From contig NZ_CP053839.1 of NCBI RefSeq assembly GCF_013201625.1, forward strand, positions 1,116,001 through 1,180,000: a DNA stretch of 64,000 bases. The letters run 5' to 3'. A program made the position numbers and the translations under genes. The stretch is from Aliarcobacter lanthieri (GTDB taxonomy: Bacteria; Campylobacterota; Campylobacteria; Campylobacterales; Arcobacteraceae). The notes beneath the pieces are model-generated. The model searched no databases. It saw only the letters and a list, made by a program, of their open reading frames with translations, and was not told where the DNA came from. This document shows positions 14,773 through 59,155 of this stretch, piece after piece (position 1 is the first letter of the stretch; every line of letters begins with the position of its first letter).

Positions 14773-16872
14773 ATGACAGCAAAGGAAACAAAATTATTAA
14801 AGTTTATTGCAAATTCTTCTCAATTTGTAATACCAATTTATCAAAGAACTTACAGTTGGACTGAGCCAGAATGTTTTCAACTTTGGCAAGATATTGTAAG
14901 AGCAGGAAAAAATGAAAAAATCGGTGCCCATTTTATTGGTTCAGTAGTTTATGTACAAGACGGAAATTACTCTGTAACCATACAATCTTCTTTACTGGTT
15001 ATAGATGGTCAACAGAGACTTACGACTGTAGTACTATTACTAGCTGCTCTGTCTAATTTATTAGATGATGAGCAAGAAATTATAGAAGATTTTTCAAAAA
15101 AGAAGCTAACAGGTAGATATTTGATTGATCCTTTGGAAAGTGGAGATAGAAAATATAAGCTTATCCTATCTCAAACGGACAAAGACACTTTAATAGCTCT
15201 TATTAATAAAGACAAAATAAATTTACCAAAAGATTATTCTCTTAGAGTAAAAACTAATTATGAGTTTTTTGAAAATAAACTGGCTGAAAATATAGATGAT
15301 CTTGAAACTATTTGTAAAGGTATAGCAAAACTACTAATCGTAGATATTTCACTTGATAGACAATATGATAATCCTCAATTGATCTTTGAAAGTATGAATT
15401 CAACAGGTAAAGAGTTAACTCAAGCAGATTTAATCAGAAATTACATCCTAATGGACTTGGAACATGAACTTCAATCAAGACTCTATAAAGAGTATTGGCG
15501 ACCAATGGAGCTTGATTTTGGACAAGAAGCTTACCAGACATATTTTGATGCTTTTATGAGACATTATCTTACAGTAAAAACAAAAGAAATTCCGAAAATA
15601 GATAGTATTTATGAAGAATTTAAAAAATATCATAGAGAAGAAAATATATCTATCGAATTATTAGTAGCTGACATTAAAACTTTTTCTCAATATTTTTGTA
15701 AAATGGCTTTAGGGCAAGAAAAGGATAAAGCATTATCTTATGCCTTTAAAGATTTAAAAGAATTAAAAGTTGATGTTGCATATCCATTACTATTAGAGTT
15801 TTATGATGATTATGAAAACAACCATTTATCTAAAGATGATTTTGAAAAAGCTATTAGATTAATAGAAAGTTATGTATTTAGAAGAGCTGTTTGTGCAATC
15901 CCTACAAATTCACTTAACAAAACATTTGCAAATTTTACAAAATCAATCAAAAAAGATAGATATTTAGAGAGTATCCAAGCTACGTTTATGCTTTTAACAT
16001 CTTATAAGAAGTTTCCGACAGATTCAGAATTTAAACTCTCTTTAGTAGAAAAGAATTTATATAATATGCAAAATAAAAGCTATTGGCTGAGAAGATTTGA
16101 AAATTTTAAAAGAAAAGAAAAAGTCAATCTTAATGAATATACAATAGAACACATAATGCCTCAAAATAAGAATTTATCAAAAGAGTGGCAAAACACTTTA
16201 GGAGAAAATTGGCAAGACATTCAAGCTCAATGGATTCATACGATAGGAAACTTAACTCTTACAGGATATAACTCTGAGTATAGTGATAAACCTTTTGAAG
16301 AAAAAAGAGATATGGAAGGTGGTTTTGCTAAAAGTCCTTTAAAATTAAATGAAGGATTGGGAGATATAGAACTTATTTGGAATGAAGATGCTATCAAAAA
16401 TAGAGGTAAAAGATTATCAAATCAAGCAATTGAAGTTTGGAAATTCCCTGAACTTGAAACATCAATTTTAGAGACTTATAAAGCACCTAAAACTTCAAAT
16501 AGCAATTACACTATGGATGATCATCCAAATCTTTTGAAATCTCAAAATAAAAAGCTTTTTGAAGAATTAAGAAAAGAAGTATTGTCCTTAGACTCAAATG
16601 TAACCGAGGAGTTTTTAAAACTTTATATCGCTTATAAAGCTGAGACAAATTTTGTAGATATAGTTCCACAAGCAAATAGTTTAAAACTTTATATAAACAT
16701 AGCATTAAATGAACTAGAAGATCCAAAGAAACTTGGAAGAGATGTATCAAATATAGGAACTTGGGGTAATGGTGATACTGAGGTAATATTAAACTCAACA
16801 GATGGAATTCCATACATAATAGGCTTAGTGAGACAAGCTTTGGAAAAACAATTAGGAAATGATATAGACTAA
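14773..16872 (+). CDS. Single-chain GmrSD-type (DUF262-DUF1524) restriction protein
   Basis: 699 residues. The N-terminal DUF262 domain carries IPIYQRTYSW and VIDGQQRLTTVVLLLA, the conserved ParB/Srx-like nucleotide-binding motifs of GmrS. A middle segment carries FESMNSTGKELTQADLIRN, typical of the family. The DUF1524 HNH-type nuclease follows with YTIEHIMPQNKNLS and HTIGNLTLTGYNSEYSD. The C-terminal 90 residues (VDIVPQANSLKLYIN...DVSNIGTWGNGD) look like a DUF5655 domain. Such proteins cut modified or invading DNA in an NTP-dependent way. The gene stands alone, about 250 bases after the terminator of the previous operon, and starts the defence island. Confidence 0.85.
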   Translation: MTAKETKLLKFIANSSQFVIPIYQRTYSWTEPECFQLWQDIVRAGKNEKIGAHFIGSVVYVQDGNYSVTIQSSLLVIDGQQRLTTVVLLLAALSNLLDDEQEIIEDFSKKKLTGRYLIDPLESGDRKYKLILSQTDKDTLIALINKDKINLPKDYSLRVKTNYEFFENKLAENIDDLETICKGIAKLLIVDISLDRQYDNPQLIFESMNSTGKELTQADLIRNYILMDLEHELQSRLYKEYWRPMELDFGQEAYQTYFDAFMRHYLTVKTKEIPKIDSIYEEFKKYHREENISIELLVADIKTFSQYFCKMALGQEKDKALSYAFKDLKELKVDVAYPLLLEFYDDYENNHLSKDDFEKAIRLIESYVFRRAVCAIPTNSLNKTFANFTKSIKKDRYLESIQATFMLLTSYKKFPTDSEFKLSLVEKNLYNMQNKSYWLRRFENFKRKEKVNLNEYTIEHIMPQNKNLSKEWQNTLGENWQDIQAQWIHTIGNLTLTGYNSEYSDKPFEEKRDMEGGFAKSPLKLNEGLGDIELIWNEDAIKNRGKRLSNQAIEVWKFPELETSILETYKAPKTSNSNYTMDDHPNLLKSQNKKLFEELRKEVLSLDSNVTEEFLKLYIAYKAETNFVDIVPQANSLKLYINIALNELEDPKKLGRDVSNIGTWGNGDTEVILNSTDGIPYIIGLVRQALEKQLGNDID

Positions 16873-16979: not shown

Positions 16980-17192
16980 ATGAAAATACAAAAAATTCAA
17001 ATTGAAAATTTTAGGCTTCTCAAAAATATAACAATTAATTTGGAAAAAGAGCTTTCAATTATTCTAGGTAAAAATAATGGTGGAAAAACTTATTTTTTAT
17101 CTATACTTGATAAGTTTTTAAATAATTCTAATGGTTTTTTATTTAATGACTTTAATGTGGAATTTACAAAAAGTTTTTTGCCATATAATTAA
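16980..17192 (+). pseudogene. Truncated OLD-like/AAA ATPase, N-terminal stub
   Basis: 70 codons matching only the first part of an SMC/OLD-like ATPase: IQIENFRLLKNITINL, then the Walker A motif LGKNNGGKTYFL. The frame stops soon after and no Walker B or nuclease part follows; the downstream 200 bases are unrelated AT-rich sequence. Probably the remnant of an OLD- or Gabija-like defence gene cut by rearrangement. Confidence 0.7.
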
Positions 17193-18498: not shown

Positions 18499-18549
18499 TA
18501 TTAGCACTCTATGTATTTAGATGCTAAAAAAAATAAGGATAGCGTTTTT

Positions 18550-19245
18550 ATGGATAAATATAATATTAATGCAATATACATACCTGCTATTTTCTTAATG
18601 ATACCAATAGTTTTTGTAATTGAAGTTTTAAGAATTGATACTGATAAAATAATAAAAACTATGGGAATGATTAATTATGAATTTGATGGGATAACGATAA
18701 CTGCAGGAATAGTTTTGTGGATTTTTTTCTTTAAAGTGATTAGATACATTGGGAAACATTTTGTTGAAAATCGTATTTTTGAAAATGGGAGTAAATTTCC
18801 AACAACGTTATATTTAACGAAAGATTCAAATGAACTTTCAAGTGCTATTAAAACAAAGATTTTTCAACATTTAGAGTCAGATTTTAAATTCGAACTTTCA
18901 CATTTAGATCAATTAAATGGAAAAGAAGAGCTTAAAGAAATTAATAGTTTAGTTGGTTCAATCCGTAGAAAAGTTAAAGATGGTACTTTAACTTTGAAAA
19001 GAAATATAGATTATGGACAAGTAAGGAATTTTATTGGAGGATTATTTATTGCTTTACCTATTACATTATTATGTAATATTTATTGTATTTATTACTCACA
19101 ATATGGAATTATTGAATATACTTTATTTGGCATAAGTTTAGTATTTATTCTTATCTTACTGTTTCATGTTTCTATTATTAAAAAGTTTGCAGACGAATAT
19201 GCCCGTATGCTATTTGAAGATTATTTAACATTAGAAAGGAATTAA
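18550..19245 (+). CDS. Four-helix membrane protein, first gene of the E2-E1-JAB operon
   Basis: The start at 18550 is chosen because it lies about 45 bases after the predicted transcription start and has AAGGA upstream; ATG 18511 is the alternative. The 231 residues form two pairs of transmembrane helices (AIYIPAIFLMIPIVFVIEV, GIVLWIFFFKVI; then GGLFIALPITLLC..., FGISLVFILILLFHVS). Between them is a 100-residue soluble, charged region likely to be coiled coil or a small domain. This topology is like the 4TM effectors seen beside nucleotide-signalling and ubiquitin-like defence operons, but no cyclase gene is present. It may be the membrane-disrupting effector or a membrane anchor; this is inference. 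The next gene starts 3 bases after its stop. Confidence 0.6.
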   Translation: MDKYNINAIYIPAIFLMIPIVFVIEVLRIDTDKIIKTMGMINYEFDGITITAGIVLWIFFFKVIRYIGKHFVENRIFENGSKFPTTLYLTKDSNELSSAIKTKIFQHLESDFKFELSHLDQLNGKEELKEINSLVGSIRRKVKDGTLTLKRNIDYGQVRNFIGGLFIALPITLLCNIYCIYYSQYGIIEYTLFGISLVFILILLFHVSIIKKFADEYARMLFEDYLTLERN

Positions 19246-19248
19246 TCT

Positions 19249-20391
19249 ATGATTTATACAAAGATTGGATTTTTACCAGTTGACAATGGTAATATGACAT
19301 TTATCAAATTAAATGATGTAAAGGAAACAACGATTTTATACGATATGTATATTAGAGAAAAAGCAACTGACCCTAATGATAAAACATATGATGTTTTACA
19401 ATATTTAAAAGATAATTTAAAAACAGATTCAAACGGTAGACATTTTGTTGATGTATTTATTTTATCTCATCATGATGATGACCATATTAGAGGTTTTGAA
19501 AACTACTTTTATACAGGGGATATAAAAGAGATTCCAGATAAATGTGAAAAAATTTACATTAAAGAGATTTGGGGTTCTTCTCGTTTCTTTAAAAGAGCTA
19601 GTAAGTACAATAAATTAGAAGATGGTGCATTAGCTTTTAATACAGAAATGAAAAGAAGATATGAACTTTATAAAAAACATAAAGAAATACAAGAAGAAGG
19701 CAATAGAATTATCATTTTAGGAGAATCTGAAGACGATAAAACAGATCATGTTGAAGATATTGTTTATGGAATTGGAGAATCTATTCATATGTTAAACAAT
19801 AGAAATTTAGCTTCAAAAATTGATATTAATATATTAGGTCCAATTGAACAACAAGAAAATGAAGCTGATGAATTATATAGAAGAAAAAATAGAGGGAGTG
19901 TAATCTTACAAATCAATATTAAAGAAAGTTATTACATAAATCAAATATTATTAACTGGTGATGCAGGAGCAGATGTATTGGAATATATGCATGATATTTA
20001 TCAAAAAGAACTAAATAAATTTAAGTATGATATTTTACAAGCACCACATCATTGTTCTAAATACTCTATGTTTAATAAAATAAGTGAAGATGAATGTGAG
20101 TTATCTGGAAAAGCATATAAAATGCTTTCTCAAGTAAATCCAGGAGCTAAAATAATTGCTAGCTGTAGAGAATTTGGTAAAGATACACCTCCTCACAAAG
20201 AAGCAAAAAAGGAATATGAAAAAATTGTTGGAGAATCAAACTTTTTATATACTTTAGGTTATAAAAATGGGCTTGAACCAATTGAATTTGAATTAACACA
20301 ATTAGGACATAAAGAGATAGTAAAAGCATCTAAAGCTAAAATGACTACTGCATCTGCAATATCAGTCGGAGAAGCACGTGGACATGGTTAA
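19249..20391 (+). CDS. ComEC-like metallo-beta-lactamase-fold protein with flexible Gly-ended tail
   Basis: 380 residues. SHHDDDHIRG at residues 73-82 gives the HxDxDH metal motif used by ComEC-type MBL domains. A later LLTGDAGAD supplies the bridging Asp and QAPHHCSKYS the distal His. The domain is interrupted by an insertion of about 100 charged residues. After the last predicted strand (IEFELTQLGH) comes a 30-residue low-complexity tail ending SVGEARGHG, with Gly as the final residue. The tail looks like the flexible C-terminus of proteins that are attached through a terminal Gly by E1-E2 enzymes. Its stop overlaps the start of the E2-E1-JAB gene. Whether it is a hydrolase, a nuclease or the conjugated modifier is open. 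Confidence 0.75.
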   Translation: MIYTKIGFLPVDNGNMTFIKLNDVKETTILYDMYIREKATDPNDKTYDVLQYLKDNLKTDSNGRHFVDVFILSHHDDDHIRGFENYFYTGDIKEIPDKCEKIYIKEIWGSSRFFKRASKYNKLEDGALAFNTEMKRRYELYKKHKEIQEEGNRIIILGESEDDKTDHVEDIVYGIGESIHMLNNRNLASKIDINILGPIEQQENEADELYRRKNRGSVILQINIKESYYINQILLTGDAGADVLEYMHDIYQKELNKFKYDILQAPHHCSKYSMFNKISEDECELSGKAYKMLSQVNPGAKIIASCREFGKDTPPHKEAKKEYEKIVGESNFLYTLGYKNGLEPIEFELTQLGHKEIVKASKAKMTTASAISVGEARGHG

Positions 20392-22477
20392 TTCTCATTT
20401 TATTGAATTAGCTCATGAATATACTAATCAATCACATCATATAAGTCATGTAACAGATATACAAGTGGATGAAGTAAATAAAAAAGCTTCATTCACTGCC
20501 ATTTTTAAATTAAACTTTCCAAGTGCAATAACAGGCGATGAAACAGAATTTGGTGTTAGAAAAGAAGAAAAAGTTACATTTGAATTTTGTGAAAAATTTC
20601 CAAGTAAAGCACCTTTTATTACATTAAGAAAAGATTTTCCAAGAGATTTTGAACATATCAATCCAAATAGTGAAGTAGTTAATCCTTGTATATATGAAAG
20701 AAATTTAAGTGAACTATTACAGCAACCAAAATTTTTTGATGAGATATTAGATCAAATGGCTTTTTGGTTAGATAAAACAGTTACTAACACACTATTTGAT
20801 ATTTCTCAAGGGTGGGAACCTATGAGAACAGATGAAAATAAAGGTATTATTGAATATCCAACAAGTTTTGCTGAAAAAAATATTTTAGAAGGAATTAATT
20901 GTATTGGTATTAAATATGATAAATATGATAATAAGATATATGCATCATTAATGAAATTACATACAAGTAATTTGAATAAAACTAATCATTCTATATTAAT
21001 CCCTTTTTTTAGTAAAGGTGTTGCAGACAGATATTATCCTAATAATATATGTGAATTTCGTGATTTAGTAGATTTCTGTAATAAAGTTCATATTTATAAT
21101 TTAGGTGAACAATTAAGTGATGCACATGAACTTTTACAAAAAGTTTCTTATGTGTTTATTACATTATTTATAAAACGTCCTGCAAAATTAATTGGAACTA
21201 ATTCTGAATTTGAAATTGTAAATTTTGTAATAAACGTAAAAACATTAAAAGGTAATAAAATTCAACATGGAGCGGCTGTTTATACATTAGCAACCATTGA
21301 ATCTGCTTCAAAAGAATTATTAGCAAAATTTTCTGGCCTTAATAAAAAGCATATAAATAAAGATATGATAATTACTCAAATTGGTTGCGGTAGTTTAGGT
21401 TCTAAAATAATAATGAATTTATCAAGAACTGGTATTACTAATAATATTAACTTGATAGATAATGGATTATTTAATGCACATAATTATGCTCGACATGCTT
21501 TAAGTAGTTCAATAGGTATTTTTTCATATAAAAGTAAACTTTTAGAATCTTCTTTAATAGCTATGGGATTGCAAAATGTAAAAAGTATAATTGATGATAT
21601 TAGAGATATAAAAGAACAAATTAAAGAAAATCAAATTTTAATCGAATCTACAGCAGATATTTCTGTTAGAAATTTTTTAGTTGATGATGAGATAAAAAGT
21701 GAAGTAATTTATACAGTACTTCATCAACTAGGTACTTTGGGTTTAGTATTTATAGAAGCAAAAAATAGAAGTGTAAGAATTGATGATTTAATGGTTGAAT
21801 TTTATTATCTATGTTTTTGCCATGAGGAATTATCTAAATTAATTAGAACTAATAATATAAAATATGAAGTTATTGGACAAGGATGTGGTTCATTAACAAC
21901 AATTGTTTCTGATGCTACTATTTCTATGCAAGCTGCTTCAATGGCAAATATAATTCAAAAAAGATTAGAGTATGGTTCAAAAGATTTTGGAGAGCTTTAT
22001 ATAGGCCAGATTCAAAATAATATAAATATATCTTGGAAAAATTTAGAAGTACTTCCTCCAGTTATATTAAATGAAAGCACATATAATATGCAAGTAAGAG
22101 TTTCACCAAGAGTAATTAATATGATTAAAGAAGAATCAAAAAAACATCTACCAAATGAAACTGGAGGAGTTTTAATTGGCCATATATCATTAGTAAATAG
22201 AACTTTTACAATTGTAGATTTTATAGATGCACCAGAAGATAGTAAAAGAAGTCCATGTTATTTTGAATTAGGTACAATTGGACTTAAAGATAAAATAGAA
22301 TCTTATGAAGTTAAAACAAATGGTTTATTAACTTACATAGGTACATGGCATACTCATCCTAATGGAGGTGGACCATCTGGAACTGATAAGAAAATGAAAG
22401 AAAAATTAATGAAAGACAGAGGAAATTGTCCATCTGTTTGTTTGATTTATAGTAGTGATAATTTTTTAACTTTTTAA
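20384..22477 (+). CDS. Tripartite E2-E1-JAB ubiquitin-conjugation-like protein
   Basis: About 697 residues from ATG 20384 (GTG 20378 is possible). Residue numbers below use the GTG start. Residues 1-140 form an E2-like domain with the KVTFEF...FPSKAPFITLRKDFP strands and a candidate catalytic Cys104 in VNPCIYE. A linker domain follows. Residues about 328-540 form a ThiF/E1 domain: IGCGSLGS (336-341), LIDNG (Asp361), N-x-x-RH (369-373) and QGCGSLT with Cys503 as candidate E1 cysteine. Residues 571-699 form a JAB/JAMM peptidase: ETGG (Glu594), WHTHPNGGGPSGTD (His658, His660, Ser667, Asp670). One chain thus has activation, conjugation and removal functions. Translation is coupled to the MBL gene by an 8-base overlap. 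No separate ubiquitin-like protein is encoded nearby. Confidence 0.85.
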   Translation: MVNSHFIELAHEYTNQSHHISHVTDIQVDEVNKKASFTAIFKLNFPSAITGDETEFGVRKEEKVTFEFCEKFPSKAPFITLRKDFPRDFEHINPNSEVVNPCIYERNLSELLQQPKFFDEILDQMAFWLDKTVTNTLFDISQGWEPMRTDENKGIIEYPTSFAEKNILEGINCIGIKYDKYDNKIYASLMKLHTSNLNKTNHSILIPFFSKGVADRYYPNNICEFRDLVDFCNKVHIYNLGEQLSDAHELLQKVSYVFITLFIKRPAKLIGTNSEFEIVNFVINVKTLKGNKIQHGAAVYTLATIESASKELLAKFSGLNKKHINKDMIITQIGCGSLGSKIIMNLSRTGITNNINLIDNGLFNAHNYARHALSSSIGIFSYKSKLLESSLIAMGLQNVKSIIDDIRDIKEQIKENQILIESTADISVRNFLVDDEIKSEVIYTVLHQLGTLGLVFIEAKNRSVRIDDLMVEFYYLCFCHEELSKLIRTNNIKYEVIGQGCGSLTTIVSDATISMQAASMANIIQKRLEYGSKDFGELYIGQIQNNINISWKNLEVLPPVILNESTYNMQVRVSPRVINMIKEESKKHLPNETGGVLIGHISLVNRTFTIVDFIDAPEDSKRSPCYFELGTIGLKDKIESYEVKTNGLLTYIGTWHTHPNGGGPSGTDKKMKEKLMKDRGNCPSVCLIYSSDNFLTF

Positions 22478-23394: not shown

Positions 23395-24315
23395 ATGGAA
23401 ATAGCAATAGATATAGGTTATGGACACACAAAGATAAAAACAAATGAAACAGAGTTTAAATTTCCAACAGCAGTAGAATTAGCAAAAACTCAAATGGTTG
23501 AAACCGATACTTATAACTTTGAAGGAAAAAAGTTTTATGTTGGAGAAGATGCTACTAGAAATGCTTTATTAACAAGAGATTATGAATTTTTATATAAATA
23601 TGCCCCTTTGTTAATCGTAGAATCTCTTAAAATGGCCAATATAGATTTTAGTGAAGATATAACAATTAAAACAGGGTTGAGTTTATATGATTTAGAAAAA
23701 GCTGCAATATTTGATAAAGATGCAGCAAATAGAAGAGATGAATTTTCTAAAAGGATTTCAAAGTTTTATGTTAATGATCAAGAATATAAATTTAATATTA
23801 AATTATTTGCTCAAGGGCAAGGTGTTTGGCAAGATTATTGTTTAGATAATGGAATAATTGAAGATGGTTATGATGTTGTTGTAGATATAGGTTATAGAAC
23901 TAATGATGTAATTGTTTTCAAAAATGGAAAAACAAATAGAGCTGAATCAAGTGCAGATGATAAAGGTATTAACCAAATTACAACAGAACTTCAAACTATA
24001 ATTAATAAGAGATTTGATGTTGTCTTAACAGAACAAGAAGTAGCTGCTATATTAAAAAATAAATATATAACAATATCTGGTGCAAAAAAAGATTTAACAA
24101 ATTTAATTTTTGAAGTAGTTGAGGGGTATATCGAATCATTTTTCAACCTACTAAAAGCTAAACATGGAAATATACTTAAAATAGCACAAAGGGTAATTAT
24201 AAGTGGTGGTGGGGCTTATATTATACAAGAGTATGCACAAACTTTACCAGGAAATGTTGTTTTCTCTCAAGCACCTTTAGAATATGCGAATGTTAGAGGA
24301 TATTATAATGCCTAA
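23395..24315 (+). CDS. parM: ParM-like plasmid segregation actin
   Basis: 306 residues with the actin-like ATPase layout: phosphate-1 motif AIDIGYGHTKIK at the N-terminus, phosphate-2 motif VVVDIGYRTNDVIVF in the middle and the adenosine motif VIISGGGAYII near the C-terminus. Length and motif spacing fit the ParM/StbA/Alp group. It is expected to form filaments that push sister plasmids apart when capped by ParR on the upstream centromere. The stop overlaps the start of the RHH gene. The symbol is used for the family; the subgroup was not determined. Confidence 0.8.
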   Translation: MEIAIDIGYGHTKIKTNETEFKFPTAVELAKTQMVETDTYNFEGKKFYVGEDATRNALLTRDYEFLYKYAPLLIVESLKMANIDFSEDITIKTGLSLYDLEKAAIFDKDAANRRDEFSKRISKFYVNDQEYKFNIKLFAQGQGVWQDYCLDNGIIEDGYDVVVDIGYRTNDVIVFKNGKTNRAESSADDKGINQITTELQTIINKRFDVVLTEQEVAAILKNKYITISGAKKDLTNLIFEVVEGYIESFFNLLKAKHGNILKIAQRVIISGGGAYIIQEYAQTLPGNVVFSQAPLEYANVRGYYNA

Positions 24316-35976: not shown

Positions 35977-37464
35977 ATGAAGAAAATTATTATAACTATT
36001 GCATTATTAGTAAGTTTTTCTAATGCAAGTTTAAAAGATTTTGCAGATGGAGTTGTAAATGTCAAAGAGAGTGGAGGCACTATAAATACAAGAGATAGAA
36101 CAATACTTTATGGTGGTGGTTATACTATGAAAGTTCCAAATGTAACTCTAACACCGTTTCAAGTTAAAGCACCTAGTTTAAAAGCAGGTTGTGGTGGTAT
36201 AGATATGGTTTTTGGTTCTTTAGGATTTTTAGATAAAGAGCAATTTGTAAAATTTGCAGAGGGAATAATGGCAGCAGCTCCAGGAGTTGCTTTTGATTTA
36301 GCTTTAAAAACTTTATGTCCATCTTGTTCAGAAACTTTAAAAGCTTTACAATCTATGGCAAATCAGATTAATAATATGAGTTTAGATAGTTGTCAAGCAG
36401 CAACTGCATTAGGTAATTCAGCTTTAGAAGCTATTGTTGGAAATAATACAAAAGAAGAACTTTCAAATAATTCTGTAAATAATTTTTTTAAAGGTGTAAA
36501 TGAACAATATTTAAAACCAGCAACTGATTCTTTATCAAAAGGAAATAGTTGGTTATCATCTTTAGGAGCTGACATTAATAAGCCTAAAGTAATTCAATTT
36601 ATAACACAAACAAGTGGAAATTATCAAGATTCTTTACTTAGATATTTGATAAAAGATATATCGTATATAAATGGGCTTGATAATGATATCTTAAGAACAA
36701 TAACTGGGGATATAGTTATTGCATCAATAGCAAGTGGAGATAATCCTACAATATTAAATTTTTTACCTAGTTTAAATGCAGAATCATATAATGAATCATA
36801 TGCATTAGTTAGTAGTGCTAATTTAAAATCAAATACTGAAAAAATTATTAATAGACTTATGGGGTATGGTGATGATATTCCTTATACATATAACAGTTCA
36901 GGCAAGATGGTTTCAAATTCTTTTTCTAAAGGACATTTAAAAGAAGCATATACAAAAAAAGTAAATGATATTGCCACAAAAATTGTAAATAGAATAGCTT
37001 TATCAGAAAGTGAACTTCAATTTCTGGGATATTTTAATTTTCCTGTTTACAAGATTTTTAATACTTTAGGTAATAATGAATACACTCAACAAATTTTGCT
37101 TGAAAGTAGTGAGAAGTTGGCACAAATGCTTTCTGCACAAATTATTTATGAATTACTTATAAAAGTTAATCATGTGATTCAACTTCAATCAGGAGGGGTT
37201 CTTACTTATGGAGATAGAATAAGTAAACTTGCATTTACACCTAAAGAACATTTAAAAGAAATGCTAGATCTTTTATCACAACATTCAAGAATAGGTGCAG
37301 GGGTAGCTTATAGAATTTATGTAAAAGCTTACAGAGATTTTATAAGTAACTTAAATCAAAATGAATCTATACAAAAAGCTAGAGAATTAAAAAATCTTGT
37401 GATGATTAGAACAAACCCTAGTTTTTTAGATAATTTAATGTTTTTAGAAACAATAAATAAATAG
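35977..37464 (+). CDS. traH: TraH-like pilus assembly protein
   Basis: 495 residues. Signal peptide, then the conserved pieces GGYTMKVPNVTLTPFQVKAPSLKAGCGGIDMVFGSLGFLD and a Cys pair CPSC, matching TraH of F-type systems (length usually about 450-480). TraH is a periplasmic/outer-membrane-associated component needed for pilus extension. Location after TraF and before a TraN-like gene agrees with the F order of the distal genes. Confidence 0.85.
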   Translation: MKKIIITIALLVSFSNASLKDFADGVVNVKESGGTINTRDRTILYGGGYTMKVPNVTLTPFQVKAPSLKAGCGGIDMVFGSLGFLDKEQFVKFAEGIMAAAPGVAFDLALKTLCPSCSETLKALQSMANQINNMSLDSCQAATALGNSALEAIVGNNTKEELSNNSVNNFFKGVNEQYLKPATDSLSKGNSWLSSLGADINKPKVIQFITQTSGNYQDSLLRYLIKDISYINGLDNDILRTITGDIVIASIASGDNPTILNFLPSLNAESYNESYALVSSANLKSNTEKIINRLMGYGDDIPYTYNSSGKMVSNSFSKGHLKEAYTKKVNDIATKIVNRIALSESELQFLGYFNFPVYKIFNTLGNNEYTQQILLESSEKLAQMLSAQIIYELLIKVNHVIQLQSGGVLTYGDRISKLAFTPKEHLKEMLDLLSQHSRIGAGVAYRIYVKAYRDFISNLNQNESIQKARELKNLVMIRTNPSFLDNLMFLETINK

Positions 37465-37474
37465 GTATTACCCA

Positions 37475-39076
37475 ATGAAAATATTATTAAGTTTAATTTT
37501 CATAATAATAGGTTTAAATGCAAATGATAAAAATAATGCAAAAAATAGTGGTTCAATAGCTGGACAAAGTGCAATTACTAAATATGGTTCAAAAAGTAAA
37601 GTTAATTCCAATATGTCTATTCCTTTACAAAGTACAGGGCAAATGACTTCTATTGATGGAAGTAAAACCTTTAACGCAAAAATAGAAAGTTGTGCTGAAA
37701 ACAACGATGGAATACGACTTGTTTTTGGACCACAATCAAATGGATTGTTAAATGTTCAGATAAATCAAGATTTAAATGCTACAGGGAATTATAATTATTC
37801 TATAAATTTATCTGGCATAGAAAATATTTGTAGTGGAGGATATGGTGCAAATAATGGAAAATATTATAGATATAAATTTGACCCATCAACAAAAAAAATA
37901 TCAACTTATGAAATAGCAAAAAGTGATATAGGTGGTTGTTTTTGCATAACTACTGCTTGTAAATATGGTTCTTATAGTCAAAATATTGCAGATAAAATTG
38001 CTGGAGATTTAATAGGAACTATAGGCTCTTCAGGAATTGCAAATTATCAGGTTGGGATTAATAGATATGAAGAATTAAGCAAAACATATTTTTTATATGT
38101 TAAAAATAATAGTAGTTGTAAAGATTCTAATTTAGGAAATAACTACACAAATACAAATCCGACATCGTACTATTCTTCACAAAATATTCCTCCTTTAGAT
38201 ATAAGTGATGTTTCATTAAAAGATGGAAATAAAAGTGACAGTTTATATTACATTACAAATAACCAAAATAGTACTGTAATTAATTCTTTGAATGGTGGTG
38301 CTAATCACAACATAACAATTAATAATATGCAAATTTGTACAATAATTAAAATACCTTATACTGATACAGATGGAAGTATTAAAGTTGATGTAAAAGATGG
38401 TTGTATAGCAAATTATAGCTGTATATTAGACCGTGAAGAGATATGCGATAATTCTGGTAGAAACTGTATAGATAAAATATTAAATAGAAAATTAACTACA
38501 TTTAATATACCTATTCAATGTCAAAATTTTAATGAAAATTATCAAGTTTGTGCAAATGGAAATAATATTAACACTGTTACGAAAAATGGATCAACTTCTA
38601 ATATTTATCTATCAGCTAACAATAGTTATTTTTATACAAAAAGACATTATGATTGTGGAACACAAACTATTAATCATGATGCAAGTAAAACAAACAATAC
38701 GCTTGATTCGGTTAATAAAAATGGTTCAAAAATAAATTATCAAGATTTTGAAGGAAAATCTCAGAATATAGAATTAGGTGAATTTGAAAATTGTCAAATA
38801 CGATATTGCCGAGTTAAAATAAATACAAAACATACACAAGTTTATACAGATGGAACATCTAATGCTTCAACAAAAGATGGTGTAAGTACAGTTGAATATG
38901 AATTTAAAAAATGTAATCAACTAGCAAATCAATCGTATATATGCCCTTTGGAAAGCGGAGAAACATTACTTGATGATTGTAGTTGTAATATTGGGATGGG
39001 TGCAGCTAGTATGGCTATTGGTTATGCCAGTGCTATTGAAGATGCTGTAAAAGATTTTACTTGTTCTTCTAATTAA
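37475..39076 (+). CDS. TraN-like cysteine-rich mating-pair protein (tentative)
   Basis: 533 residues with an N-terminal signal sequence. More than 20 cysteines occur in pairs (for example GCFCITTAC, LDDCSCNIG), and the middle has Asn/Ser/Thr-rich repeats. This fits a TraN-type outer-membrane adhesin that stabilises mating pairs and needs periplasmic disulfide formation. Direct sequence motifs of TraN were not confirmed; the assignment rests on Cys content, size and place after TraH. The gene ends inside a terminator. Confidence 0.5.
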   Translation: MKILLSLIFIIIGLNANDKNNAKNSGSIAGQSAITKYGSKSKVNSNMSIPLQSTGQMTSIDGSKTFNAKIESCAENNDGIRLVFGPQSNGLLNVQINQDLNATGNYNYSINLSGIENICSGGYGANNGKYYRYKFDPSTKKISTYEIAKSDIGGCFCITTACKYGSYSQNIADKIAGDLIGTIGSSGIANYQVGINRYEELSKTYFLYVKNNSSCKDSNLGNNYTNTNPTSYYSSQNIPPLDISDVSLKDGNKSDSLYYITNNQNSTVINSLNGGANHNITINNMQICTIIKIPYTDTDGSIKVDVKDGCIANYSCILDREEICDNSGRNCIDKILNRKLTTFNIPIQCQNFNENYQVCANGNNINTVTKNGSTSNIYLSANNSYFYTKRHYDCGTQTINHDASKTNNTLDSVNKNGSKINYQDFEGKSQNIELGEFENCQIRYCRVKINTKHTQVYTDGTSNASTKDGVSTVEYEFKKCNQLANQSYICPLESGETLLDDCSCNIGMGAASMAIGYASAIEDAVKDFTCSSN

Positions 39077-39101
39077 CTAGTTTATTTTTTAACTAGTTAA
39101 T
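39072..39101 (+). terminator. Terminator between the two transfer operons
   Basis: Stem ATTAACTAG / CTAGTTAAT with a 12-base loop, followed by TTTATA. It overlaps the stop codon of the TraN-like gene and separates it from the second leader copy. Confidence 0.65.
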
Positions 39102-39164
39102 TTTATATATGTTTACTAAATAACAAATACTCACAAATAATCAACTAAAGATACATAAAAAATC

Positions 39165-39282
39165 AATCAAAAATATACAAAATCCAAAATTTACAAAAAA
39201 ACTATTCATAAAAAGTGCCTTTTATTGTTTTAATTATCTTGAATAAAGAAATTAAAATTAAAAAGGATGAAAATGAAAAAAA
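39165..39282 (+). repeat. 118-bp duplicated leader, copy 2
   Basis: Identical to 33488-33605, including the ribosome-binding site and the double ATG. It starts the second transfer operon beginning with traK. Confidence 0.85.
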
Positions 39283-40205
39283 ATAAAAAACTCTTAGTAA
39301 GTTCTTTATTTTTGATTGCTTCTAGTTTGTATTCAAATGAAATAGATGCAAATCTAAAAAAGATCGAACACTCTTTATCATTTAAATTTGTTGATGTTTC
39401 AAAAACAGATGTAAATAGGATAGTTTGTGAAAATGGTGAGATAGGAAAAATTGTTTATTCAAAAGACAAAGAACTAACAATACAAAAAGATGGTGAAAAT
39501 GCTTTTGTAAAGCTATCTCCTGTAACAACTAGATCAAATGGAATCATAGTTGATACCATAGTAAATGATTTCATAAGAGATGTTTATGTTGAATGTAGCA
39601 AGAAAATATACTCATTAAATTTAACTCCTAAAGATATATCGGCACAAACTATACTTCTTTTTGACAATAACACAAAAAAAGACAATCAGGAAGCTAAGAG
39701 ATTTGAAAAATCAAATTCTTTTGAAAAAACACTCATTGATATTATTAAATCAATCTATAAAGAAAAAGAACCTGATGGATATATATCAAAACTTTTGCCT
39801 CCAAAAACTATTAAATTTAGTGAATTAGAACTTACTCCTACAAAAACTTATTCAGGGAATGATTATTTTGTTTATGAATATAGAATAAAAGCTCTTAAAG
39901 ACTTAGACCTTGATGAAAAAATGTTTATAAATTTTGTTGCTAGTAATCCATTAGCTTTAGCTTTAACTCAATTAAATATTGAGAAAAATAAAGAGGCAAG
40001 ATTATTTGTTATTTCAAATGCTAGTCCTGATCCGATAAGTATAGAAGAAAAAACAAATAATTACTTTAAATCTTTGGAAGAACTAAAAATTGATGAAGAA
40101 AATATAAAAAAAGAGACTAGCCATGTAATTTCTCCAAATGAAAGTATCGAAACAAATATTAAAGATACTTCAAATGAAATATTAGACGAGGAGTGGATGA
40201 AATGA
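39273..40205 (+). CDS. traK: TraK-like secretin-associated protein
   Basis: 310 residues from ATG 39273. Signal peptide MKKNKKLLVSSLFLIASSLYS, then a strand-rich N-terminal domain (SFKFVDVSKTDVNRIVC...) that fits the TraK secretin-like domain, and a C-terminal domain with EEKTNNYF. TraK forms the outer-membrane core with TraB and TraV (VirB9 counterpart). It is directly followed by traB with an ATGA overlap, the canonical order. Confidence 0.75.
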   Translation: MKKNKKLLVSSLFLIASSLYSNEIDANLKKIEHSLSFKFVDVSKTDVNRIVCENGEIGKIVYSKDKELTIQKDGENAFVKLSPVTTRSNGIIVDTIVNDFIRDVYVECSKKIYSLNLTPKDISAQTILLFDNNTKKDNQEAKRFEKSNSFEKTLIDIIKSIYKEKEPDGYISKLLPPKTIKFSELELTPTKTYSGNDYFVYEYRIKALKDLDLDEKMFINFVASNPLALALTQLNIEKNKEARLFVISNASPDPISIEEKTNNYFKSLEELKIDEENIKKETSHVISPNESIETNIKDTSNEILDEEWMK

Positions 40206-41419
40206 AAGAAAAATTTGAATCCTCTAAAAAAAAGCAATGGATTATAAGTGCAACTGCCTTAGCAGCTGGATTTATAGTTATTGTTTTAGGTAGTTCTTTG
40301 CTAAGTGGAGATGCACAAAAAGAAAGAGAAAAGAAAATATTAGAAATGCCTCAAGTAAAGTATCTTGACGCTGATAAACTTGAGAAAGACTCGTTTAAAG
40401 AGACTTATGGAAAGCAATTAACTTCTGTTCAACAAAAACAAGATCAACTAGATAAACAACTTAAAGATCTAAATAGATTATTGGAAGAAAATAAAAGAAA
40501 TGAGATTGACAAAATACATGATGAAAAACAAAAAGTAGATAATTTTTCATCAAATAATATTTTAAATAATTTAGTTACACAAATTCCGCCATTAGAAGAT
40601 ATGCAAAGAGATATAAATTCACAAGAAAACTCTACAGAATCATCAAAAATAGAAGTTAAAGTAGAAGATGGATTTTTAATGATTGATGGAAAAGAAAGTA
40701 ATGAAGATGATTTGAATTTATCACAAAATCAAAATAAAAACTCACAAAATATAACTAAAAAGAAAAAGATAACTATTCCTGCAGGAAGTTTTGCGAAAGT
40801 TATTTTATTAAATGGACTTGATGCCCCAGCTGGTGCTAATGCAAAAAGCGAACCTCACCCAGTTATTTTAAGAATAACAAATAATGCAAATTTACCAAAT
40901 AACTTTAAATCTGACATAAAAGAGTGTAGGGCTGTTGCTGGTGGTTATGGAGAATTATCAAGTGAAAGAGCAATTATTAGAGTAGAAGGACTTGTATGTA
41001 TTGCAAATGATGGAACTACCTATGAAAGTAAACCTGATACTTTTGGATTTGTAACTGGTGAAGATGGAAAAATAGGTCTTGCAGGAAGAGTTGTTACAAA
41101 ACAAGGAGCAATTCTTGCAAGAACAATGGCGGCTGGATTCGTAGAAGGTTTAGGAGAAGTTTTTAAAGAGTCATCATCTACTGTTAATACTTCAGGAATA
41201 GGTGTAACTTCTACAATAGATCCAAATAAGGCAACTCAAGTTGGTCTTTACTCTGGAGTAGGTAAAGGATCTGAAAAGCTTAGTGAATATTATCTGAAAC
41301 TAAATGATCAAATGTTTTCAATTATTGAAATTAATGTGGGTAGAGAAGGTGATGTTTTATTTAATAAAACTGTTGTTTTAGAAGAAATTAAAGAAGGAGA
41401 AACAGCAAATGAAGGCTAA
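40202..41419 (+). CDS. traB: TraB-like core-complex protein (VirB10 family)
   Basis: 405 residues. The start at ATG 40202 is supported by GAGGAG 8 bases upstream; a GTG at 40193 is alternative. A cytoplasmic N-terminus, one transmembrane helix (WIISATALAAGFIVIVLGSS), a coiled-coil and linker region, then the VirB10-like barrel: IPAGSFAKVILLNGLDAP, ILRITNNANLP and RVVTKQGAILARTMAAGF. It spans the envelope and links the inner ATPases to the outer-membrane pore. Confidence 0.85.
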   Translation: MKEKFESSKKKQWIISATALAAGFIVIVLGSSLLSGDAQKEREKKILEMPQVKYLDADKLEKDSFKETYGKQLTSVQQKQDQLDKQLKDLNRLLEENKRNEIDKIHDEKQKVDNFSSNNILNNLVTQIPPLEDMQRDINSQENSTESSKIEVKVEDGFLMIDGKESNEDDLNLSQNQNKNSQNITKKKKITIPAGSFAKVILLNGLDAPAGANAKSEPHPVILRITNNANLPNNFKSDIKECRAVAGGYGELSSERAIIRVEGLVCIANDGTTYESKPDTFGFVTGEDGKIGLAGRVVTKQGAILARTMAAGFVEGLGEVFKESSSTVNTSGIGVTSTIDPNKATQVGLYSGVGKGSEKLSEYYLKLNDQMFSIIEINVGREGDVLFNKTVVLEEIKEGETANEG

Positions 41420-41591
41420 AGCATTATTCATAATCTTAATATCAAATATATTCTTTTTTACGGGTTGTAGCAATAAAATTTTTATGCCTTATGAAGAAGA
41501 ACCTTTATGTAATTCAGGAAAAGGAACAGGCTATTGCGGAAGTGTATCTGATGTTTATGAGATAAAAATTAAAGAACAAAAATGGAGATAA
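41409..41591 (+). CDS. TraV-like small lipoprotein
   Basis: 60 residues overlapping traB by 11 bases. Lipobox FFTGCSNK, then two Cys in LCNSGKGTGYCGSV as in the N-terminal part of TraV. It is shorter than a normal TraV (about 170), whose C-terminal portion may be supplied by the next gene, which has its own lipobox. Confidence 0.6.
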   Translation: MKAKALFIILISNIFFFTGCSNKIFMPYEEEPLCNSGKGTGYCGSVSDVYEIKIKEQKWR

Positions 41592-41593
41592 AA

Positions 41594-41968
41594 ATGATAA
41601 GAAAAACATTATTGATAGGATTAGTTTCAAGTATATTTATTTTAACAGGGTGTGCAGAGAAAAACAATACTGAAAATGTTGGCTTAAAAAAAGTTTCACA
41701 AGAAGAAAAATTTATAAAAATTGATTCTTTATATGAAAAAGAGAGAAAAGCTTTTCTTAGTGAGACTATGTACTCTCCAAAAATACCAGTAAAGACACCA
41801 GATAAAATTCTTAGAATACTTTTTATGCCTTATGTTGATGAGGATATGAACCTACAAACAGAGAATTTTCATTTTGTAAAAGTTGATGATGGAAGATGGA
41901 TTTTGGGTGAATATCTTAATGGGCAAGATAGAACAAATAGTCCAAAGAATTTAACACCATTAAAGTAA
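41594..41968 (+). CDS. Second TraV-like lipoprotein
   Basis: 124 residues from ATG 41594 (with GGAG upstream; ATG 41582 is also possible). Lipobox ILTGCAEK, then a C-terminal region KTPDKILRILFMPYVDEDMN...FHFVKV that resembles the end of TraV, where a proline- and Asp-containing RI-x-x-x-PYVD-D motif occurs. Together with the preceding gene it may form a split TraV. Confidence 0.55.
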   Translation: MIRKTLLIGLVSSIFILTGCAEKNNTENVGLKKVSQEEKFIKIDSLYEKERKAFLSETMYSPKIPVKTPDKILRILFMPYVDEDMNLQTENFHFVKVDDGRWILGEYLNGQDRTNSPKNLTPLK

Positions 41969-41977
41969 AGGTTTAAT

Positions 41978-44560
41978 ATGAGCAACTTACCTTTAAATGA
42001 ATGGTCAAAAATGTATGATAGAGAGAAAATTACAGATTATCTCTCTATTATAGATTATGACAATAAAAATAAAGTTTGGATAACAAATGATGGTGGCTTT
42101 GGATTAATTTATGATTGTAGCCCTTTAATTTATGCTAGTGACAATACAGCTAGTTCATTATTGTCAGCCTTGCAAGTTTTACCACAAAATGCTTATGTTC
42201 AAGTGATTTTATTTGCAAGTCCAAATGTAACATCAATAGTTGATAAATGGGAGTTTTTCAATACTAGGGATGAAGCATTATCAAAAGAGCTCACAAAAAC
42301 ATATAAGGAGTTTTTAGAGCAAAAAGTAAAAGAAGACATTACTCCTTCGTATAACTCTCCTCTTAGAAATTTTAAACTTCTTTTAACAGTTAAAATCGGT
42401 GGAAAAGAGAAATTAACACCTCTTTTTTCTGATATTTTTAAATTAAATGTTAAATCGTTTACTCAAATATTTAAAAAAGAAAAATCAGATGAAGAGATTG
42501 AAAATGATAGAAAAATTAATAATTTAGAGTTAAGAAAGAAATATTTAGATTTATTGACAATCAAATCTCAACTTGCTGGTTCTTTAAGACAAGCTGGTTT
42601 AGCACCTGAACATATAAAGCCAAATGAGTTAATTAAATTTTACTATGAAGTTTTAAATCAAAATCATGATTTTAGAGATACACCAAAATGGGATGGAAGT
42701 GATTTTAATAACTTTCTTTTTGCAAACGATAATACTGTAGAAGTTAAAAGTAAGGAAATTATTTGTGATAAAAAATATATAAAAACATTAAGTGTGAAAG
42801 AATATCCTGAAAACTGGAAATTTGGCGATATTATTAAATATACTGGGGATATTCTAACAAACCAAAATCATACAACACCTTTTATCATTACTATGAATAT
42901 CAAAAAATTAAATGATATTGAAGGAAAAGATAAAATTTTTAGATCAGCTGCTGCAACAAATTCACAACAAATGCCTTACTCTTTATTCCCAAAATTGAGA
43001 TTAATACATAAAGATCTTAATTATGGAATGGATAAATTACAAAAAGGAGCTGTTCCATATTATTTTACTATGCAAATAGCAATATATGGAGAAGATAGTG
43101 AGCAAGTTAATACTTCTTTTGGTCGAACAAAATCATATTTTAAAACATTAAGTTTTGGTTTAGAAGAGGATAACTATGTAGTTTTACCTGCATTATTGTC
43201 TATGTTGCCTCTTGGTTATGATAGTACTATTCAAGAATTTTTAGGCAATGAAAGAGGAAGAGTAGTATTTGCAGAAAATATTTCAGAATTAATGCCAGTT
43301 GCAGGTGAATTTTTAGGTCAAAAAATGCAAGTTCCTTTGGTATCAGCAAAAGGACAATTATTTGGAATAGATTTATTTGCAAATAAAGCAGGTGGTTTTA
43401 ATGCTTTTACTATTGGAATGACTGGTTCTGGAAAATCTGTTTGGATGCAATGGTTAGCTTTAAATTACTATATTTCTAATAATAAAATTTGGATTATTGA
43501 TATTGGAGGTTCTTATAAAAATATGTGTGAGTCCTTTGGTGGACAATATATTGAATTTGATAAAACCAATCCTATCTCTCTAAATCCTTTTACATCAATT
43601 ACAGATAAAGAGATGCTTGATGAGTATATGGAATTTATAGTATCTCTTTACCTTTTAATTGGATTACCTAAGTCTAAAACATTATCTGATGAATGGGAAA
43701 AGTTAATGAAACTTCATCTTAATAATGCAATTGAATCAAGTTATATTAAATATGGGACTGATAGTTGTGTTGATACAGTAATAGAAAGTCTTGAGGGTAT
43801 ATATAGTAATACACAAGATAATAGGCTTAGAGATATTATTAGTCATTTATCTCTTTTTGCAACTGGAAAAATTTATGGAAAAGTATTAAATGGAAGATCT
43901 TCTGTTAATTTTAATTCAGATTTGATTGTATTAGAGTGTGGGCAATTAGAAATGATGCCTGATTTATTAAATCCTGTTCTTATGGTTCTTACTTTTCAAA
44001 TATCTAAAGAAATATATCTAGCTGAATTAAATAAAACCAATCAAGACAAAAAGAATATTGTAATTATGGATGAAGCTCATAAGTTTTTAGGTAAATCTGA
44101 ACATATAGAGATGTTTATTGAACAAGCGTATAGAAGATTTAGAAAACATGGAGCTTCTATGATTGTTGGTACTCAATCATATGAAGATTTACTTGGAGAT
44201 GGTGGTTCTTATTCAAAAGCAGGTCGTGTAATTATAGATAATAGCTACTATAACTTCTTTTTGATGCAAAAATCTACTTCTAGAGAGAAGATTAAGAAAT
44301 CTGGTTTGTATCCAATGAGTGATTATGAAAATCTTATATTTGATAGCTTAGCACCAGTCGATGGAGAATATGGAGAAGTTTATGTAATTACAGATAGATT
44401 TAGGGCTAAAGCGAGAGTTGTTTTAAATAAATTCTTACAAGCAATGTTATTTACAAATGCTGATGATAGGATGATTATTAACTCTTATATCGAACAAGGA
44501 TTAAGTAGATTAGAAGCTGTAAAAGCTTTAGAAGAATATAAAAAAAGAGAAGGAAGATAA
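41978..44560 (+). CDS. traC: TraC-like type IV secretion ATPase (VirB4 family)
   Basis: 860 residues. The N-terminal part (WSKMYDREKITDYLS, LIYDCSPL) matches TraC. Walker A IGMTGSGKSVWMQW lies near residue 480 and Walker B IVIMDEAHKFLG near 697, followed by RRFRKHGASMIVGTQ. It is expected to be a cytoplasmic-face hexameric ATPase that powers pilus assembly and substrate transfer. Size fits F TraC (875). Confidence 0.9.
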   Translation: MSNLPLNEWSKMYDREKITDYLSIIDYDNKNKVWITNDGGFGLIYDCSPLIYASDNTASSLLSALQVLPQNAYVQVILFASPNVTSIVDKWEFFNTRDEALSKELTKTYKEFLEQKVKEDITPSYNSPLRNFKLLLTVKIGGKEKLTPLFSDIFKLNVKSFTQIFKKEKSDEEIENDRKINNLELRKKYLDLLTIKSQLAGSLRQAGLAPEHIKPNELIKFYYEVLNQNHDFRDTPKWDGSDFNNFLFANDNTVEVKSKEIICDKKYIKTLSVKEYPENWKFGDIIKYTGDILTNQNHTTPFIITMNIKKLNDIEGKDKIFRSAAATNSQQMPYSLFPKLRLIHKDLNYGMDKLQKGAVPYYFTMQIAIYGEDSEQVNTSFGRTKSYFKTLSFGLEEDNYVVLPALLSMLPLGYDSTIQEFLGNERGRVVFAENISELMPVAGEFLGQKMQVPLVSAKGQLFGIDLFANKAGGFNAFTIGMTGSGKSVWMQWLALNYYISNNKIWIIDIGGSYKNMCESFGGQYIEFDKTNPISLNPFTSITDKEMLDEYMEFIVSLYLLIGLPKSKTLSDEWEKLMKLHLNNAIESSYIKYGTDSCVDTVIESLEGIYSNTQDNRLRDIISHLSLFATGKIYGKVLNGRSSVNFNSDLIVLECGQLEMMPDLLNPVLMVLTFQISKEIYLAELNKTNQDKKNIVIMDEAHKFLGKSEHIEMFIEQAYRRFRKHGASMIVGTQSYEDLLGDGGSYSKAGRVIIDNSYYNFFLMQKSTSREKIKKSGLYPMSDYENLIFDSLAPVDGEYGEVYVITDRFRAKARVVLNKFLQAMLFTNADDRMIINSYIEQGLSRLEAVKALEEYKKREGR

Positions 44561-44562
44561 AA

Positions 44563-44916
44563 ATGAGAAAAAATGAATGGATTAGTATTGTTGCAATAAT
44601 GTTTTTTATATCAGTTGTTAGTGCTTTTACTACATTATTTATTTCCAATAAGTATTTTATTACAAAAATTAAAACAGTTTCAATGGTTGAAGTTTTGAAA
44701 GATACTAACGATGATAGCTATCAAAAGTTTTTAGATGGAACAATATCTCAAGATGAATATTCAAAATTAGTAGAAACTAAGATGATTAAAATTCAAAGTG
44801 CTTTAAATTACTTCTCTTCAAAGAACGATATTATACTTGTTGAAGAAGCATTAATAAAAACTGATAAAAATAGTTATATCTCTATAACTGAAGCTGTGAA
44901 GCGTTATGTTAAATAA
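44563..44916 (+). CDS. TrbI-like small membrane protein
   Basis: 117 residues starting 2 bases after traC. One N-terminal transmembrane helix (WISIVAIMFFISVVSAFTTLFIS) and a periplasmic helical part with charged residues. Position between traC and the S26 peptidase gene matches trbI of F-type clusters, where TrbI affects pilus retraction. Sequence similarity cannot be confirmed here. Confidence 0.55.
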   Translation: MRKNEWISIVAIMFFISVVSAFTTLFISNKYFITKIKTVSMVEVLKDTNDDSYQKFLDGTISQDEYSKLVETKMIKIQSALNYFSSKNDIILVEEALIKTDKNSYISITEAVKRYVK

Positions 44917-45397
44917 TATTAGAACAGTTTTAAAAAGCAAACTATTTTATACATTAGTTGTATTAATTTTTATAGTACCTTTTTTATATGAAAAACTACC
45001 TATTAGAGTTGATATAACTCAACAAAATAGTTTACCTCAAAAAATATGGCTAACTTATAGTGATTTAACTGTAGAGAGCGATTATGTTCTATTTATTCCT
45101 CCTAAAACAAAATATACATTGAGTTCTAATATAGAATATTTAAAAAAGATTTCTTGTAATGAAGATGATTTATTAGTTGTTGATGAGAATAGAGATTATT
45201 TTTGTAATGATAAATATATTGGAACAGCAAGTAAATATGATGGTAATAAAAACCTGATAGAGAATTTTGTGTTTAATGGAATTATTCCTAAAAATAAATA
45301 TTTTGTTACAGGAACACATCCATTAAGCCATGATAGTAAATATTTTGGATTTATTGATAAATCTCAAATATTAAGAAAAGCTATACCAATTTATTGA
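44906..45397 (+). CDS. S26-family signal peptidase (TrhF/TraF-type)
   Basis: 163 residues, overlapping the previous gene by 11 bases. One N-terminal transmembrane segment, then TQQNSLPQKIWLTY with the catalytic Ser (NSLP), LKKISCNEDD holding the general-base Lys, and TGTHPLSHDSKYFGFIDKSQI (box E). It is predicted to process a pilin or another exported substrate during transfer. In SXT/R391-type clusters such a gene sits between traC and traW. Confidence 0.75.
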   Translation: MLNNIRTVLKSKLFYTLVVLIFIVPFLYEKLPIRVDITQQNSLPQKIWLTYSDLTVESDYVLFIPPKTKYTLSSNIEYLKKISCNEDDLLVVDENRDYFCNDKYIGTASKYDGNKNLIENFVFNGIIPKNKYFVTGTHPLSHDSKYFGFIDKSQILRKAIPIY

Positions 45398-45408
45398 AAG
45401 GATAATTT

Positions 45409-59119: not shown

Positions 59120-59155
59120 ATAATGATGTTACAAAATAAAAATAGAGGAAAAAGT

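What the first reader, a model, noticed from the sequence alone, without database searches (positions are those of the whole stretch)
19249..20391. MBL protein may be the modifier itself: flexible tail ending in Gly
Seen: after the last MBL strand there is a 30-residue low-complexity tail ending SVGEARGHG, immediately before the stop that overlaps the E2-E1-JAB start. No separate ubiquitin-like gene is present. Known: in type II CBASS the CD-NTase is attached via its C-terminal Gly by Cap2 and released by Cap3. Inference: here the MBL could be the protein conjugated through its terminal Gly and released by the JAB domain, making conjugation a regulator of an MBL enzyme.
Basis: inference. Interest (0 to 1): 0.75.

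Follow-up and report, generated by a model that had tools for sequence, protein, structure and literature searches.

The report
Hydrolase with ubiquitin-like conjugatable tail
A phage-defence operon on a conjugative element encodes a metal-dependent hydrolase whose floppy tail ends in a glycine kept across very distant bacteria, which strongly suggests that its neighbouring ubiquitin-type enzymes attach this hydrolase itself to other proteins, as happens to the signalling enzyme in type II CBASS.

Summary
In detail: MBL protein 19249-20391 (380 aa) ends ...SVGEARGHG and its stop overlaps the start of an E2-E1-JAB gene (20378-22477). Both genes match NCBIfam's 'anti-phage 6A-MBL' equivalog models well above cut-off, so the system is known; Iyer et al. 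2006 listed the gene pair. The new part is the tail. In 35 clusters (60% identity) of 6A-MBL proteins from several phyla, 34 carry a Gly motif (HG, RAG/RVG, G[FY]G, QG, YG) at, or 1-6 residues before, the C-terminus; one ends in Ala. Gly is the exact last residue in 18/35, against 0/24 clusters of other MBL proteins (Fisher p=8e-6). In 17 of 32 testable clusters the downstream start cannot overlap the Gly codon, so gene overlap does not explain it. The tail is predicted disordered. E2 and E1 cysteines and JAMM residues are invariant in 24 partners. A third gene is usually a TM protein (the window's 18511-19245 belongs to one such family) or a patatin phospholipase. Best reading: the MBL hydrolase fills the CD-NTase's place in a type II CBASS-like system and is conjugated through its Gly, with JAB trimming precursors and releasing it. 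No biochemistry was done; the MBL's chemistry and targets are unknown.

The parts
18511..19245 (+). Four-TM protein (244 aa; 2 TM - about 95 aa soluble part - 2 TM), candidate membrane effector of the system
   Evidence: Hydropathy; hit by an HMM built from the third gene of alphaproteobacterial/Nostoc 6A-MBL operons, E 3e-11 at Z=1000, nearly full length; same gene in the same place in the 82%-identical relative L004
19249..20391 (+). 6A-MBL hydrolase, ComEC-like MBL fold, proposed conjugated protein
   Evidence: NF058524 E 9e-93, 311 bits vs cut-off 220; ComEC domain 9ic4 Z 22.4
19468..19485 (+). MBL metal motif HHDDDH, residues 74-79 (HxDxDH)
   Evidence: H74, D76, D78, H79 invariant in 30 homologues, with D238, H267, H268
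20317..20388 (+). Disordered C-terminal tail, residues 357-380, ending RGHG
   Evidence: Residues 361-380 pLDDT <50; tail follows last strand 353-356
20386..20388 (+). Terminal Gly380 codon, proposed point of activation and conjugation
   Evidence: Gly in 34 of 35 clusters, Ala in one
20378..22477 (+). E2-E1-JAB fusion (Cap2+Cap3-like), activating, conjugating and releasing enzyme
   Evidence: NF058523 E 7e-145, 484 bits vs cut-off 320; Prok-E2_A, ThiF, Prok-JAB; PDB Cap2 7tsq/7to3
20687..20689 (+). Candidate E2 catalytic Cys104
   Evidence: Invariant in 24 homologues
21383..21400 (+). E1 nucleotide-binding GxGxxG (residues 336-341)
   Evidence: G336, G338, G341, R350, D361, R372, K385 invariant
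21884..21886 (+). Candidate E1 catalytic Cys503
   Evidence: Invariant in 24 homologues
22157..22387 (+). JAB domain JAMM residues E594, H658, H660, S667, D670
   Evidence: All invariant in 24 homologues

Best explanation
This is a 6A-MBL anti-phage operon in which the MBL hydrolase takes the place that the CD-NTase has in type II CBASS. The E1 domain adenylates the MBL's C-terminal Gly and passes it via E1 Cys503 and E2 Cys104 to lysines of target proteins; the JAB domain removes the 0-6 residues that follow the Gly in many homologues (none in this window) and releases the MBL from its targets. Conjugation primes or places the MBL enzyme, whose phosphodiesterase/nuclease-type activity then leads to activation of a membrane-attacking partner (here the 4-TM protein; elsewhere a patatin lipase), ending in abortive infection. 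Shown: conserved Gly tail, intact catalytic residues on both sides, operon linkage, membrane-partner gene. Inferred: conjugation, trimming by JAB, priming, the MBL's substrate, the link to the effector.
For: C-terminal Gly motif in 34/35 clusters, Ala in one; exact terminal Gly 18/35 vs 0/24 in other MBLs, including second MBLs in the same neighbourhoods. All four Gly codons occur at the position, and in 17/32 clusters no start codon of the partner gene can overlap it. The preceding tail varies in sequence and length. Extension present/absent changes at least 8 times on a tree built without the tail, yet the Gly stays. The tail is disordered. E2 Cys, E1 Cys, E1 nucleotide site and JAMM are invariant. 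No ubiquitin-like domain in the small ORFs scanned. Precedent: in type II CBASS the CD-NTase C-terminal Gly/Ala is conserved only with full Cap2+Cap3, is required for conjugation, and Cap3 cleaves after it (PMC10097602); a CBASS cyclase is conjugated to PspA (PMC11153139). Membrane-type third genes in most operons.
Against: No conjugate has been observed. In 16 of 34 clusters the Gly is not the last residue, so a trimming step must be assumed. The motif classes were defined after looking at the data; a Gly somewhere in the last 7 residues is weak evidence by itself in Gly-rich tails (only the exact-last-residue test is free of this). In the window itself the HG codons contain the possible ATG 20384 of the next gene. 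How an MBL hydrolase would activate a TM or patatin effector is unknown. The E2-E1-JAB model was too poor to use (mean pLDDT 49).
Confidence: 0.78

Rival explanations
1. The E2-E1-JAB protein uses an endogenous ThiS/MoaD or other host ubiquitin-like protein as modifier, and the MBL is only its target or an effector (the 2006 proposal).
For: Iyer et al. 2006 proposed this for operons lacking a Ubl gene; E1 is ThiF-like.
Against: Does not explain a Gly kept at the MBL C-terminus in 34/35 clusters on a tail that otherwise varies; the analogous proposal for row 6b fell when CBASS CD-NTases were shown to be the modifier (PMC10097602).
Confidence: 0.08
2. The Gly tail is activated and transferred, but to a membrane lipid or a small amine (Atg8-like lipidation) or only to the membrane effector, placing the hydrolase at the membrane.
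For: Third genes are membrane proteins or phospholipases; two loci fuse E2-E1-JAB to a patatin (L098, L113); a CBASS cyclase is conjugated to membrane-associated PspA.
Against: No direct evidence; the CBASS relative modifies many protein lysines (PMC10097602).
Confidence: 0.1
3. The terminal motif is a non-covalent docking or degradation signal, or a by-product of the overlapping start of the next gene, and no conjugation through Gly occurs.
For: In the window HG is encoded by CATGGT, which contains the possible ATG 20384; a start codon at or before the Gly cannot be excluded in 15 clusters.
Against: 17 clusters without possible overlap keep the Gly; motif classes without ATG (RAG, GFG, QG); the partner carries a complete catalytic E1/E2/JAMM set.
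Confidence: 0.04

Closest known systems
6A-MBL anti-phage system (NCBIfam NF058524 / NF058523; 'row 6a' of Iyer et al. 2006; [quoted passage not shown]
   Same: Both genes match the equivalog models above cut-off; same gene order and overlap.
   Different: Nothing found that separates the window's operon from this family. The NCBIfam MBL model ends before the tail (346 positions, residues 8-353), and no paper in the searched library discusses the terminal Gly.
Type II CBASS (CD-NTase, Cap2, Cap3, effector)
   Same: E2-E1 and JAB enzymes, partner enzyme with conserved C-terminal Gly/Ala, membrane or patatin effectors, WYL-type regulator nearby in several relatives.
   Different: An MBL hydrolase replaces the nucleotide cyclase; Cap2 and Cap3 are fused; about half of the partner proteins carry 1-6 residues beyond the Gly; the penultimate residue is restricted by clade (H, A, F/Y).
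Bil and Bub bacterial ubiquitination-like systems
   Same: E1, E2, JAB deconjugase; precursor trimming to expose Gly is known for BilA (PMC11354881).
   Different: They encode a beta-grasp modifier; none found here.
ComEC metallo-beta-lactamase domain
   Same: Fold (9ic4, Z 22.4) and HxDxDH motif.
   Different: No membrane channel part; extra C-terminal Gly tail; different operon.

Membership tests
6A-MBL system | MBL protein above NF058524 cut-off (220 bits) | tested here: met
   311.1 bits
6A-MBL system | E2-E1-JAB protein above NF058523 cut-off (320 bits) | tested here: met
   484.2 bits
6A-MBL system | The two genes adjacent in one operon | tested here: met
   Overlapping ORFs 19249-20391 and 20378-22477
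6A-MBL system | Anti-phage activity | not testable with these tools
   Needs a phage challenge
Type II CBASS | CD-NTase gene in the operon | tested here: not met
   The slot holds an MBL protein; no nucleotidyltransferase match among the operon's proteins and neighbours scanned
Type II CBASS | Cap2-like E2-E1 with catalytic cysteines, and Cap3-like JAB | tested here: met
   C104, C503 and JAMM residues invariant in 24 homologues; Cap2 7tsq/7to3 hits
Type II CBASS | Partner enzyme ends in Gly or Ala | tested here: met
   Window ends HG; family 18/35 clusters exact Gly, 2 exact Ala, 34/35 with a Gly motif within 6 residues
Bil/Bub systems | Own ubiquitin-like (beta-grasp) gene | tested here: not met
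   No ubiquitin-like Pfam match in the six small ORFs scanned around the operon
ComEC-like MBL fold | Fold and HxDxDH metal motif | tested here: met
   Z 22.4, 257 residues, rmsd 3.3 to 9ic4; motif invariant
Ubiquitin-like conjugation through the MBL | Isopeptide adducts dependent on Gly380, C104, C503 | not testable with these tools
   Needs biochemistry

The most novel reading that the evidence does not exclude
A metal hydrolase goes through a full ubiquitin-like life cycle: it is made as a precursor with a short extension in about half of its family, trimmed by the JAB domain to expose Gly, activated, conjugated to targets and released. That would be a second enzyme, unrelated to CD-NTases, used as a protein modifier in bacterial immunity, with its enzymatic output controlled by being conjugated.
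Probability: 0.55. Interest if true: 0.78.

Novelty: new member of a known kind. Interest (0 to 1): 0.62.

Why it matters
If true, ubiquitin-type machinery in bacteria is a general way to handle immune enzymes by their C-terminal Gly rather than something special to CD-NTases or beta-grasp modifiers. It gives the poorly understood 6A-MBL systems a concrete, directly testable biochemistry (one residue to delete, two cysteines and one JAMM motif to mutate), predicts a maturation step absent from the published CBASS account read here, and names the likely effectors (4-TM protein, patatin). Homologues on E. coli and Klebsiella plasmids (29 of 5,426 complete E. coli genomes carry near copies of one MBL gene; 242 plasmid records have a match) make laboratory tests easy.

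Tried and rejected
Start-codon overlap as the cause of the Gly: rejected by 17 clusters without possible overlap. Tail composition as the cause: rejected for the exact last residue (binomial 1e-8), but 'Gly somewhere in the last 7 residues' would be weak alone and is not relied on. Hidden ubiquitin-like gene: none by Pfam in the small ORFs scanned. AlphaFold model of E2-E1-JAB: mean pLDDT 49 with 7 sequences, not used. The genome-contig scan, made with a too narrow alignment, found one close relative and several distant MBLs; phage records held none, viral contigs seven once a broad alignment was used. Literature: no paper in the open library names '6A-MBL' or discusses the MBL C-terminus; subscription papers and preprints are not held, so prior description cannot be excluded. 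Locus L078 was counted as unlinked but lies at a contig end (its tail ...EYGR would fit the motif); this does not change the exact-Gly test.

Full report
What is there. The window lies in a 2.28-Mb single-contig genome whose closest hit with a named record is Arcobacter caeni. The MBL ORF 19249-20391 and the E2-E1-JAB ORF 20378-22477 overlap. NCBIfam names both: NF058524 '6A-MBL_enzyme' (E 9e-93) and NF058523 '6A-MBL_cap2_3' (E 7e-145), each above its equivalog cut-off. The same models name the divergent homologues used below. The gene pair was described as row 6a of Iyer et al. [quoted passage not shown] So the operon is a new member of a known kind; the question is the tail.

The C-terminal Gly. 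Homologues came from the window's genus, plasmids (and the regions), Pseudomonadota and Bacteroidota genomes and viral contigs. Host groups include the window's own phylum, Pseudomonadota, Bacteroidota, Actinomycetota, Cyanobacteriota, Deinococcota and Abditibacteriota. The MBL proteins next to E2-E1(-JAB) fall into 35 clusters at 60% identity. Thirty-four carry HG, RAG/RVG, GFG/GYG, QG or YG at the C-terminus or 1-6 residues before it; the remaining one, from an Aeromonas plasmid where E2-E1 and JAB are separate genes, ends in Ala, as do some CBASS CD-NTases. Gly is the exact last residue in 18/35 clusters against 0/24 clusters of other MBLs (Fisher p=8e-6) and against 12% Gly in the tails (binomial 1e-8). 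Aligned on the motif, the Gly column has an entropy of 0.19 bits while the 14 positions before it have 2.1-3.1 bits (the motif was chosen after seeing the data, so this profile is descriptive).

Could it be an artefact? In the window the HG codons CATGGT contain a possible start of the next gene. In 17 of 32 testable clusters no start codon of the next gene can overlap the Gly codon, and the Gly is still there; all four Gly codons are used. The presence of an extension after the Gly changes at least 8 times on a tree built without the tail, so stop codons move while the Gly stays. Motif classes follow the tree: GFG/GYG is one clade (100/99 support), RAG and HG need five changes each.

Machinery. 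In 24 aligned E2-E1-JAB proteins the E2 Cys104, the E1 nucleotide-binding residues, E1 Cys503 and the five JAMM residues are invariant. The nearest solved structures by sequence are Cap2 (7tsq, 7to3) and a JAB peptidase. The AlphaFold model of the fusion was too poor to use.

The MBL. The model (mean pLDDT 80, tail <50) is closest to the MBL domain of ComEC (9ic4, Z 22.4, rmsd 3.3, 257 residues). The metal residues H74, D76, D78, H79, D238 and H267/H268 are invariant, so it is probably an active phosphodiesterase or nuclease (inference from the fold); the substrate is unknown.

The third gene. The 4-TM protein just upstream (18511-19245) is homologous to the third gene of alphaproteobacterial and Nostoc 6A-MBL operons (E 3e-11, Z=1000). 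In other operons the third gene is another small TM protein or a patatin phospholipase, and in two loci the patatin is fused to the E2-E1-JAB protein. These are typical membrane-attack effectors, as in CBASS (general knowledge). A WYL-domain regulator sits next to several of the operons.

Mechanism. In type II CBASS the C-terminal residue of the CD-NTase is Gly or Ala only when full Cap2 and Cap3 are present; the Gly forms the thioester with Cap2 and the isopeptide bond with targets, Cap3 cleaves after it, and conjugation raises cGAMP output (PMC10097602). A CBASS cyclase is conjugated to PspA (PMC11153139). The same pattern with an MBL in the cyclase's place makes conjugation of the MBL the most economical reading (0.78). 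What the 6A-MBL tail adds is that about half of the family would need trimming first, which the fused JAB could do, as is known for BilA and its JAB protease (PMC11354881). How the hydrolase then triggers the effector is open: it could produce or destroy a nucleotide signal, or be brought to the membrane.

Novelty. The operon class is known and carries an anti-phage name. I found no description of the MBL C-terminus in the open library, but subscription papers and preprints are not held, so it may have been described.

Noticed in passing
window 35977-51037: F-type conjugation genes (TraH, TrbI, TraC/TraG P-loop, TraG_N) and an actin-like segregation protein at 23395-24315: the defence operon sits on what looks like an integrated conjugative element.
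   Followed up: partly
window 14773-16872: GmrSD type IV restriction protein with a C-terminal DUF5655, upstream of the operon: a second defence gene on the element.
   Followed up: no
window 16980-17192: 70-aa ORF matching only the first 54 positions of AAA_15: likely remnant of an OLD-type ATPase gene.
   Followed up: no
window 59123-62141: Overlapping gene pair matching PADLOC candidates PDC-M62A/PDC-M62B, related to Septu PtuA/PtuB.
   Followed up: no
window 51064-55011 (-): 1315-aa SF1 helicase-type protein, best PADLOC match MkoC.
   Followed up: no
L098 587-4618; L113 6469-10005: E2-E1-JAB proteins fused in one frame to a patatin phospholipase: conjugation machinery and effector in one polypeptide.
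   Followed up: partly
L035 7486-8556; L093 9486-10556; L041 7710-8062; L047 7014-7823; L048 1581-2624 (-): A second, different MBL gene lies next to several 6A-MBL operons; those whose C-terminus was read lack the Gly motif. Role unknown.
   Followed up: no
L046: Decayed 6A-MBL operon on an Acinetobacter ursingii plasmid: MBL and E2-E1-JAB broken into several frames.
   Followed up: no
plasmids collection: 242 plasmid records hold a 6A-MBL homologue, 127 of them Klebsiella, many conjugative.
   Followed up: no
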